DNA of 64,000 nt from the NCBI RefSeq assembly GCF_009601705.1, contig NZ_CP045687.1, positions 2,144,001 through 2,208,000 of the forward strand, read 5' to 3'. The notes under the pieces were generated by a model, which made no database searches, was not told where the DNA came from, and worked only from the letters and a program-made list of their open reading frames with translations. Position numbers and translations under genes: made by a program. Source of the stretch: Sulfolobus sp. E5-1-F. Lineage in GTDB: Archaea; Thermoproteota; Thermoprotei_A; Sulfolobales; Sulfolobaceae. Positions 36,401 to 38,999 of this stretch are shown here, piece by piece. The stretch's first letter is position 1; the number at the start of each line of letters is the position of its first letter.

Positions 36401-37384
36401 ATGATAACCATTGTTTATAATGACATATACAAGTATCACGCTTCAAAAAAGTATCATGTGGAAAACCCTAATAGAATTGACAAGGCATTATCTGCGATTA
36501 ATCAACTTGAAGTCAGGTTTGAAAAACCTATTAGGGTTAATGATCCTCAAATAGTTCATTCGGAAGATTACGTTAAATTAGTTGAAAAACACTCTCAGTT
36601 AGAAGAGAATTTAGATGCAGATACTTATACTAACAAGTACACCTACGAAACTGCTCTTTATGCGTTGGGTGGCGCATTAAAGGCTTTTGAGACTAATGGA
36701 TTTGCATTAGTGAGACCTCCTGGTCATCATGCTGGAATTAATGGAAAAGCTTTTGGTGCTCCTACTTTAGGCTTCTGTATTTTCAACAATATAGCATATC
36801 CTATTAAGAAGTATAAGTTGAAAAGAGTTGCTATAATTGATTTTGATGTGCATTATGGTAATGGAACGCAAGAGATTTTTTATGATGATCCAGATATTTT
36901 GCATATTGATATCCATCAAGATCCTAGAACTATCTATCCTGGAACTGGTTTTGCGAATATGGTTGGTGGAAAGGACGCTGAAGGGACTAAAATTAACTTA
37001 CTGATACCTCCTTTAGGTAGTGATGATTTATATGATGAGTTAATTCCAATTATTCAAGCTATTCTAGATGATTTCAAACCAACAGTTATTGCGTACTCTG
37101 CTGGTTTTGATTCTTATGTTGGTGATGGTCTGTCTTCAGTTAACGCTACTGAGTACACGTTTTATAATTTTGGTATAATCAGTAACAAATTTCCTAGGAA
37201 ATATGCGGTTTTAGAGGGAGGTTATGATAAGGGTTTAGTAAGAGGTTTAAAGGCATTTTTAGAAGGATTTGCAAACGTGGAAATAGAGTATAAGAAATAT
37301 AAATCAACTGATGCGATTAGGTCCAGGTTTATGAACTATCTAAGTGAAGAAAAGCAAATTTTGAGGAATTATTGGAGTATCTAG
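36401..37384 (+). CDS. Histone deacetylase/AcuC-family amidohydrolase (copy 2)
   Basis: A 327-residue arginase-fold protein with RPPGHHAG, GFCIFNNIAYP, IDFDVHYGNGTQEIFYDD with zinc ligands, and SAGFDSYVGDGL. These are complete HDAC-family active-site motifs, closer to the classical pattern (GFD) than copy 1 (GGDSH). Substrate unknown; acetylpolyamine or protein acetyl-lysine are options. The TnpB-like gene on the other strand ends 3 bases after this stop. Confidence 0.88.
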   Translation: MITIVYNDIYKYHASKKYHVENPNRIDKALSAINQLEVRFEKPIRVNDPQIVHSEDYVKLVEKHSQLEENLDADTYTNKYTYETALYALGGALKAFETNGFALVRPPGHHAGINGKAFGAPTLGFCIFNNIAYPIKKYKLKRVAIIDFDVHYGNGTQEIFYDDPDILHIDIHQDPRTIYPGTGFANMVGGKDAEGTKINLLIPPLGSDDLYDELIPIIQAILDDFKPTVIAYSAGFDSYVGDGLSSVNATEYTFYNFGIISNKFPRKYAVLEGGYDKGLVRGLKAFLEGFANVEIEYKKYKSTDAIRSRFMNYLSEEKQILRNYWSI

Positions 37385-37386
37385 CG

Positions 37387-38235
37387 CTAACAAGTGTAGT
37401 AACATTTTAGTGCTATATTATATGCAGCATTATAATCTCTATCTGCTTTGTATCCACAAGCTGGACATACAAATAAAGAACCTAGTATTTCACCTTTCTT
37501 GTAGCCACATCTTGCACATACTCTTGATGTATTATATGGGTCTATTTTTCTATATCTAATACCTCTCCTTCGTATCTCGTTTTCTAACATATTCTGTAAG
37601 GCTCGTAATCCTTTACCTGTTTTTGTATCAAAATACTCCAAATTCTCTATTGCAACTATTTTTGGTTCTAATTCTTCAATAAAGCTTACAGCTTCGTGAA
37701 TGATTTTTCTAGCGTTAGTCTTCATTTCTTCTAGCTTAATAATTCCTTGATTTTCACTTAAAAAATTCACAAAATACTCCATAAGTTTAGGTTCATTAAA
37801 GAATCTTACTTTCCATGGCTTACTATTTTTTAATGCAACAATTGTTATTAGGTGACGTAAACCCAAGTCTACTCCAACAATGCTAGGGTCCTCATGATAA
37901 GCTAAATATACTTTTATATCGCTATCCTTATATTCTACAATCGCATATAACGGTGGTTTGGAATCACTTTGTATTTTCACTAACGTATTATATTCTTTAA
38001 TTTTTATTATATTATTGCTAACTAATTCTATCTGTAGAGGTCCATCTCTGGGGGTTCCCCCAGTAAGTATTGAAGTTACAATAGATTTGGGCAAGGTAGG
38101 AGGTGGATCTACTTTTTCCTTAATCCCCTTCTTTCTTAACGCGTCAACATAGAGCTTGTAATATACAATTTCCTTTTGAATATCCTTTAATTTACCATAA
38201 TCTATAACTTTTGCTTCTATGAGACTCTCCTTCAT
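37387..38235 (-). CDS. Short TnpB-like RuvC nuclease (IS605 OrfB family)
   Basis: A 282-residue protein, against about 370-430 in ordinary TnpB. All three RuvC residues are present: Asp in IVGVDLGLRHL near 119, Glu in AIENLEYF, Asp in ADRDYNAAYNI, with the zinc ribbon CARCGYKKGEILGSLFVCPACG between. The N-terminal HTH/REC-like part is replaced by about 60 helical residues (KDIQKEIVYYKLYVDALRKKGI). No TnpA or terminal structure is seen, and its 3' flank is the coding region of the deacetylase. It may be a decayed copy or an exapted nuclease. Confidence 0.75.
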   Translation of the reverse strand: MKESLIEAKVIDYGKLKDIQKEIVYYKLYVDALRKKGIKEKVDPPPTLPKSIVTSILTGGTPRDGPLQIELVSNNIIKIKEYNTLVKIQSDSKPPLYAIVEYKDSDIKVYLAYHEDPSIVGVDLGLRHLITIVALKNSKPWKVRFFNEPKLMEYFVNFLSENQGIIKLEEMKTNARKIIHEAVSFIEELEPKIVAIENLEYFDTKTGKGLRALQNMLENEIRRRGIRYRKIDPYNTSRVCARCGYKKGEILGSLFVCPACGYKADRDYNAAYNIALKCYYTC

Positions 38236-38276
38236 AAATTAATATTATAATCTACATGCTTAAGAATTTATACTTC

Positions 38277-38999
38277 TCAAAGATGCATAATACTTCCCAT
38301 TATAAGTTCTTCTGCATTTACTCCTAGATAATATTTTATTGTTGATGAAAAGACGTATCCATTATTGTCTGTATAGAGCTTATAATACTCTTCATTAGTC
38401 TCTTTTGATAATCTATTCTTATTGTAATAATATCCAACTAAAAGAGAGGGTCCTTCTTTCTTGTTGTAATAAATTAATACGGAATTTAAGCTAGTAGAGT
38501 AGTCCTTTAGTTTATCTAGAGTAGTTACATAAGCGTCGAATGGAGACATATTATTCTCTATTAGTACCTTAATTTCCTCTAGAATTAGATAACTATCAGT
38601 AAATGGTCTATTACTATCCCTAAAGCTCGTTCTATTAACTGAACCATTATGAGCAAAGTAGAGATCATAGAGATTTGCCCTCATGTAATAGGGATGAACA
38701 TGGGATAATCCAGTCAAAAATTTTCTGCCTGCTTTTCTTGCATGAATTACTCCAATTATCTCTTCTCCTTTGGCAACATCAATTAGATAGTTAACGTTAG
38801 GATCTTCATATAACGGATCTTCTGACCTATAATAAATTACCTTCCATTTATCATTTCTCTTGAGAAATACACTTAGACCCCATCCATCAGGGTGACTACC
38901 ATACTTAGAGAAAATATCATTTCTACTTGCCTTTATCAATGCGTTAACGTATTCTTTTAAAATTTCTCCCTTAGTGTGAAAAGCTAGAATTCTACACAT
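38277..38999 (-). CDS. Class II glutamine amidotransferase (GATase_4, YafJ-like)
   Basis: A 240-residue Ntn hydrolase. ATG is followed directly by Cys, the catalytic nucleophile after Met removal. GSHPDGWGLSVF, VIHARKAG and YFAHNGSVN are the other glutamine-site motifs. Only the glutaminase domain exists, so ammonia must be passed to an unknown partner, or another amide is hydrolysed. It overlaps the upstream MBL gene by 8 bases, pointing to coupled expression. Confidence 0.85.
   Translation of the reverse strand: MCRILAFHTKGEILKEYVNALIKASRNDIFSKYGSHPDGWGLSVFLKRNDKWKVIYYRSEDPLYEDPNVNYLIDVAKGEEIIGVIHARKAGRKFLTGLSHVHPYYMRANLYDLYFAHNGSVNRTSFRDSNRPFTDSYLILEEIKVLIENNMSPFDAYVTTLDKLKDYSTSLNSVLIYYNKKEGPSLLVGYYYNKNRLSKETNEEYYKLYTDNNGYVFSSTIKYYLGVNAEELIMGSIMHL

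What the first reader, a model, noticed from the sequence alone, without database searches (positions are those of the whole stretch)
37387..38235. Short TnpB-like nuclease with intact RuvC triad and no transposon context
Seen: all three RuvC acidic residues and the zinc ribbon are present, but the protein is about 100 residues shorter than normal, with an unusual helical N-terminus, no TnpA, and the deacetylase gene 3 bases from its stop. Known: TnpB uses a guide RNA from the 3' end of its element; in this case that DNA is deacetylase coding sequence. Inference: an exapted or miniature RNA-guided nuclease, or a decaying copy.
Basis: partly seen in the sequence, partly recalled or inferred. 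Interest (0 to 1): 0.6.

Follow-up and report, generated by a model that had tools for sequence, protein, structure and literature searches.

The report
Domesticated guide-less TnpB-like nuclease
A gene derived from the transposon nuclease TnpB has been kept as a single, fixed host gene in essentially all Sulfolobaceae archaea, with its cutting site intact but apparently without the RNA guide that characterised active TnpBs use, so it may be a host nuclease that has given up RNA guidance.

Summary
In detail: 37387-38235 (-) encodes a 282-residue TnpB relative with an intact RuvC triad (D123, E197, D267) and zinc ribbon. It is neither a truncation nor a decaying copy. One full-length orthologue, and only one, is found in 30 of 31 Sulfolobaceae genomes (28 of 28 near-complete ones), at 37-94% identity and mostly at the same locus. 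The gene tree largely follows its neighbours, dN/dS is mostly 0.03-0.11, and a TATA-like box sits about 30 bases before the start codon. In a phylum scan, members score 426-460 bits and the next protein 88. It was not found on plasmids, phages or viral contigs. One genome holds no other TnpB-type protein.

The RNA-guided reading is not supported. The 3' end, where real TnpBs of the same family show strong omega-RNA structure (z about -6), is unstructured here (z about -0.3). REC is cut from about 104 to 48 residues, and the RuvC helices that hold the omega-RNA scaffold have lost their positive charge (net +20 to -1 per 100 residues).

Best explanation: an ancient domestication that kept the RuvC nuclease and lost canonical RNA guidance. 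Domestication is shown; guide loss is inferred; substrate and role are unknown. I found no description of this family.

The parts
37387..38235 (-). CDS of the domesticated short TnpB-like protein, 282 aa
   Evidence: one orthologue in 30 of 31 Sulfolobaceae genomes
38053..38196 (-). residues 14-61: two-helix remnant of the REC domain (48 aa, against 104 aa in ISDra2 TnpB)
   Evidence: model; ISDra2 domain limits from PMC10097598
37891..38052 (-). residues 62-115: WED beta-barrel, with strand 1 at residues 3-12
   Evidence: model; whole-chain alignments to Cas12f chains
37867..37869 (-). RuvC-I catalytic Asp, D123
   Evidence: invariant in 30 of 30
37672..37791 (-). residues 149-188: RuvC helices that in TnpB hold the omega-RNA scaffold; here no longer basic
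   Evidence: role in TnpB from PMC10097598
37645..37647 (-). RuvC-II catalytic Glu, E197
   Evidence: invariant in 30 of 30
37456..37518 (-). zinc ribbon of the TNB domain, C240/C243/C257/C260
   Evidence: invariant in 30 of 30; Pfam PF07282
37435..37437 (-). RuvC-III catalytic Asp, D267
   Evidence: invariant in 30 of 30
37390..37404 (-). family-specific C-terminal CYYTC motif (residues 278-282) that ends the protein; the TnpB C-terminal tail is absent
38260..38265 (-). TATA-like box 30 bases before the ATG, consistent with an own promoter and a leaderless transcript (inferred)
   Evidence: best TATA-like match lies at -27 to -31 in 24 of 30 genomes

Best explanation
Before the radiation of Sulfolobaceae a TnpB gene lost its transposon, omega-RNA and most of its REC domain, and became a fixed, single-copy host gene. 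Its product is a compact WED + mini-REC + RuvC + zinc-ribbon protein with an intact metal-dependent nuclease site. Most likely it cuts DNA without a canonical RNA guide, recognising its substrate (branched, unwound or otherwise structured DNA, or DNA presented by a partner protein) through the remodelled WED/REC face and the zinc ribbon. Shown here: orthology, single copy, locus conservation, purifying selection, intact triad, absence of cis omega-RNA signal, loss of REC size and of basic charge in the RNA-holding helices. Inferred: that it is an active nuclease, that it binds no guide, and that the substrate is structured DNA. The cellular role is not determined.
For: One full-length orthologue per genome in 30 of 31 Sulfolobaceae; the exception is 79% complete. 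The gene for a GATase-like protein is directly upstream in 26 of 30. The gene tree largely agrees with the neighbour tree. dN/dS mostly 0.03-0.11. Triad and zinc ligands invariant in 30 of 30. The family is discrete: 426-460 bits, next 88. Not found on plasmids, phages or viral contigs. Mean 3' folding z is -0.33 against -5.9 for seven TnpB genes of Sulfolobaceae. In 16 genomes the stop overlaps or lies within 6 bases of a convergent ORF; in 8 the next gene starts within 70 bases. Net charge is +3.2 per 100 aa against +10 to +11 for TnpBs, and -1 against +18 to +23 in the RuvC scaffold-holding segment. One genome has a single PF07282 protein, this one, so its retention does not depend on resident TnpB elements or their omega-RNAs.
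Against: Nothing here shows expression, nuclease activity or absence of bound RNA. A small trans-encoded or tRNA/mRNA-derived guide cannot be excluded. The WED domain, which contacts guide RNA in TnpB, is retained. pTM is only 0.64, so the arrangement of the domains is uncertain. pI is still 9.1.
Confidence: 0.6

Rival explanations
1. It is still an RNA-guided nuclease, with a shortened guide supplied in trans from a locus elsewhere in the genome.
For: WED, RuvC and TNB are kept; in S. acidocaldarius an omega-RNA is reported from another TnpB gene (PMC12817955).
Against: Scaffold-holding RuvC helices neutralised; REC, which carries most TAM contacts in ISDra2 TnpB, halved; no cis RNA signal upstream or downstream; kept in a genome with no other TnpB.
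Confidence: 0.2
2. It is a DNA-binding regulator or architectural protein in which the RuvC site is no longer used for cutting.
For: TldR proteins show TnpBs becoming regulators (PMC13418256); the protein is small and has a zinc ribbon.
Against: All three catalytic residues invariant in 30 of 30 across 37-94% identity, whereas TldRs lose them.
Confidence: 0.12
3. It is a decaying or recently truncated copy of a resident TnpB.
For: It is shorter than the resident TnpBs.
Against: Full-length TnpBs of the genome match only the C-terminal part, at about 50% identity; orthologues of the same length are family-wide under purifying selection.
Confidence: 0.01
4. It is an active RNA-guided nuclease whose omega-RNA lies inside the 3' coding sequence and whose guide is deacetylase antisense.
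For: The gene order would place such a guide there.
Against: No excess folding or synonymous constraint at the 3' end; the downstream gene differs between genera.
Confidence: 0.03

Closest known systems
IS200/IS605 TnpB (e.g. ISDra2 TnpB; SisTnpB1 of S. islandicus)
   Same: WED-RuvC-TNB order, RuvC triad, CCCC zinc ribbon; sequence homology over about residues 90-275
   Different: No TnpA recognised nearby, no omega-RNA signal, REC 48 not 104 aa, no C-terminal tail, scaffold-holding helices uncharged, one fixed copy per genome
Cas12f (e.g. AsCas12f)
   Same: Best whole-chain structural matches: AsCas12f chain B, 267 residues aligned, Z 15.8, rmsd 7.0
   Different: 400-530 aa and guided by CRISPR RNA; no CRISPR array was looked for systematically at this locus
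TldR, TnpB-like nuclease-dead repressors
   Same: Domesticated TnpB derivatives fixed next to non-transposon genes
   Different: TldR lost the nuclease and kept the guide RNA (PMC13418256); this family kept the nuclease residues and appears to have lost the guide
RuvC Holliday-junction resolvase
   Same: RuvC nuclease fold: T. thermophilus RuvC Z 13.8 over 134 residues, rmsd 3.0
   Different: No WED, REC or zinc ribbon; only fold-level similarity, ancestry runs through TnpB

Membership tests
TnpB (active IS200/IS605 element) | RuvC D-E-D triad and CCCC TNB zinc ribbon | tested here: met
TnpB (active IS200/IS605 element) | WED domain with REC inserted between strands 1 and 2 | tested here: met
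   topology present in the model, but REC reduced to 48 aa and two helices
[quoted passage not shown]
   z -0.33 against -5.9 in controls; no synonymous constraint
TnpB (active IS200/IS605 element) | carried by a mobile element, with variable copy number and position | tested here: not met
   single copy, mostly the same locus, largely vertical tree
TnpB (active IS200/IS605 element) | NCBIfam guided_TnpB curated cut-off (100 bits) | tested here: not met
   73 bits
TnpB (active IS200/IS605 element) | RNA-guided cleavage of TAM-flanked DNA | not testable with these tools
   needs biochemistry
TldR | inactivated RuvC triad | tested here: not met
   triad invariant
Cas12f CRISPR effector | linked CRISPR array | not tested
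   no dedicated CRISPR search was run at this locus
RuvC resolvase | homodimeric Holliday-junction resolution | not testable with these tools
   only fold similarity was seen

The most novel reading that the evidence does not exclude
The family is a catalytically active, host-fixed TnpB lineage that has abandoned RNA guidance altogether, the mirror image of TldR: an RNA-guided nuclease turned into an ordinary protein-guided DNA nuclease with a core role in Sulfolobaceae.
Probability: 0.45. Interest if true: 0.82.

Novelty: new variant of a known kind. Interest (0 to 1): 0.64.

Why it matters
The well-known TnpB derivatives (Cas12, Fanzor, TldR) all keep the guide RNA. A lineage that keeps the nuclease and drops the guide would show that RNA guidance is reversible, would expose the minimal RuvC-TNB core able to act alone, and would add a lineage-specific nuclease to the core genome of genetically tractable model archaea, where knockout and RIP-seq are direct tests.

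Tried and rejected
Decaying or truncated copy: rejected. Cis omega-RNA at the 3' end: no excess folding in the family, while controls show it strongly. Structured RNA upstream of the gene: no consistent signal on either strand. Rfam scan of 34-43 kb: one sub-threshold hit, not relevant. PADLOC 'Csx1' hit (PDLC01039): resident ordinary TnpBs match the same model far better, so it looks like a misnamed TnpB profile, not a defence link. Viral structure library: mostly TnpB/Fanzor-like and RuvC-like proteins. Functional clue from neighbours: the GATase-MBL-PfkB-ThiD cluster is itself conserved and looks metabolic; this gene has its own TATA-like box and is probably only a syntenic neighbour. Literature: no description of this family found in open-access text; supplementary files could not be opened, so essentiality in the S. 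islandicus Tn-seq data was not checked. A first script mis-handled strands and one failed on a pattern; both were redone.

Full report
Observation. The ORF at 37387-38235 (-) encodes 282 aa with Pfam Cas12f1-like_TNB (E=3.6e-20) and sub-cut-off similarity to guided TnpB (73 bits, cut-off 100). It converges on a histone-deacetylase-family ORF (36401-37384, +) with 2 bases between the stops. D123, E197, D267 and four zinc-ribbon cysteines are present. Six full-length TnpBs of the same genome are 401-412 aa and nearly identical to each other; they match this protein only in its C-terminal part, at about 50% identity. It is therefore not a truncation of a resident element.

Distribution and inheritance. 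In 31 Sulfolobaceae genomes, 30 have exactly one match at E<=1e-25, covering nearly the whole query without internal stops, at 37-94% identity; all 28 near-complete genomes have it. In the remaining families of the order only ordinary TnpBs appear. With the family profile in 300 genomes of the phylum, members score 426-460 bits and the next protein 88. Named members include Metallosphaera yellowstonensis MK1, Metallosphaera javensis AS-7, Candidatus Aramenus sulfurataquae and Sulfolobales archaeon HS-7. In 26 of 30 genomes the gene for a GATase-like protein lies directly upstream, usually followed by metallo-beta-lactamase, PfkB-type kinase and ThiD genes. Every genus with two or more members is monophyletic in the gene tree; the pairs g3+g6 and g1+g10 and the group g7, g9, g11 recur in a tree of the neighbours, though support within the last group is weak. 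The family was not found on plasmids, phages or viral contigs: best matches there are ordinary TnpB-like sequences, mostly at about 30% identity or less over the RuvC half, higher only over short zinc-ribbon stretches.

Selection. dN/dS is mostly 0.03-0.11 over many pairs. One pair (L012/L013) gives 0.41 with very few changes (dS 0.04). Nonsynonymous change is close to zero across RuvC-III and the zinc ribbon. All triad and zinc residues are invariant in 30 of 30. A TATA-like hexamer is the best match at -27 to -31 in 24 of 30 genomes, which suggests an own promoter and leaderless transcript. No expression data were available.

Structure. AlphaFold2 on eight orthologues gave pLDDT 88, pTM 0.64: strand 3-12, helices 16-35 and 50-57, barrel 63-114, then RuvC with the zinc ribbon and a final helix ending at residue 281. 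By the published ISDra2 TnpB limits (WED 1-12 and 117-176, REC 13-116, RuvC 185-326 and 360-375, TNB 327-359, tail 376-408; PMC10097598), REC has shrunk from 104 to about 48 residues and the tail is gone. Best structural matches are Cas12f chains (Foldseek E 7e-12; VIA-align Z 16.5 over 160 RuvC/TNB residues at 3.0 A, and Z 15.8 over 267 residues at 7.0 A for AsCas12f chain B); RuvC resolvases match the nuclease fold (Z 13.8).

RNA guidance. Five lines speak against a canonical omega-RNA. (1) In the -90..+30 window around the stop, family mean folding z is -0.33; seven TnpB genes from three Sulfolobaceae genomes give -5.9 (range -2.8 to -10.0). (2) Synonymous divergence is not reduced at the 3' end. 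(3) In 16 genomes the stop overlaps or lies within 6 bases of a convergent ORF, and in 8 a same-strand gene starts within 70 bases, with a different neighbour in different genera. (4) Net charge is +3.2 per 100 residues against +10 to +11 in TnpBs. (5) The RuvC segment whose basic helices hold omega-RNA stems in ISDra2 TnpB has a net charge of -1.1 per 100 residues, against +18 to +23 in controls. In ISDra2 TnpB, TAM-reading residues Y52, S56, K76, F77 and Q80 lie in REC, the domain that is halved here. In S. acidocaldarius an omega-RNA is reported for the gene Saci_1941 (PMC12817955), whose tag number does not fit the position of this orthologue in the genome that by size is S. acidocaldarius (inferred from memory). 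One genome (G006; its size fits Metallosphaera cuprina from memory) has a single PF07282 protein, this one, so the gene is not kept to serve or restrain resident TnpB elements.

Mechanism. The nuclease residues are under strict selection while the guide-handling parts are reduced or neutral. The simplest reading is a stand-alone RuvC/zinc-ribbon DNA nuclease with substrate choice made by protein, not by RNA. Domestication I hold at about 0.95, guide loss at 0.6-0.65, active nuclease at about 0.85. A trans guide and a non-cutting regulator remain open. The substrate and cellular role are not determined.

Novelty. Cas12, Fanzor and TldR are TnpB derivatives that keep RNA guidance (TldR loses the nuclease instead). 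I found no report of a fixed TnpB derivative with an intact nuclease and no guide, nor of this family. The literature search covered open-access full text only.

Noticed in passing
L054:9727-9973: In Sulfolobus sp. UBA167 an IS200/IS605-like element end (GC-rich hairpin, with what looks like a TnpB 3' end on the opposite strand) appears inserted about 25 bases downstream of the gene's stop; the contig ends inside it.
   Followed up: partly
PADLOC model PDLC01039, seen with window 37387-38235 and L002: The PADLOC profile named Csx1 ('found elsewhere') matches an ordinary resident TnpB strongly (E 7.6e-70) and is probably a mislabelled TnpB profile that could produce false CRISPR-accessory calls.
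   Followed up: yes
L051, between the gene and the deacetylase ORF: In genome G012 a 536-base gap separates the two genes, and the first 120 bases after the stop fold unusually well (z -3.2); possibly a small mobile element or small RNA.
   Followed up: no
window 38277-38999: The upstream neighbour is a class II glutamine amidotransferase-like protein (weak GATase_4 and EgtC hits) conserved beside the gene in most of the family; function unclear.
   Followed up: no
window 37390-37404 (residues 278-282 of the protein): A C-terminal C-Y-Y-x-C motif is nearly invariant in the family and is absent from the resident TnpBs; role unknown.
   Followed up: no
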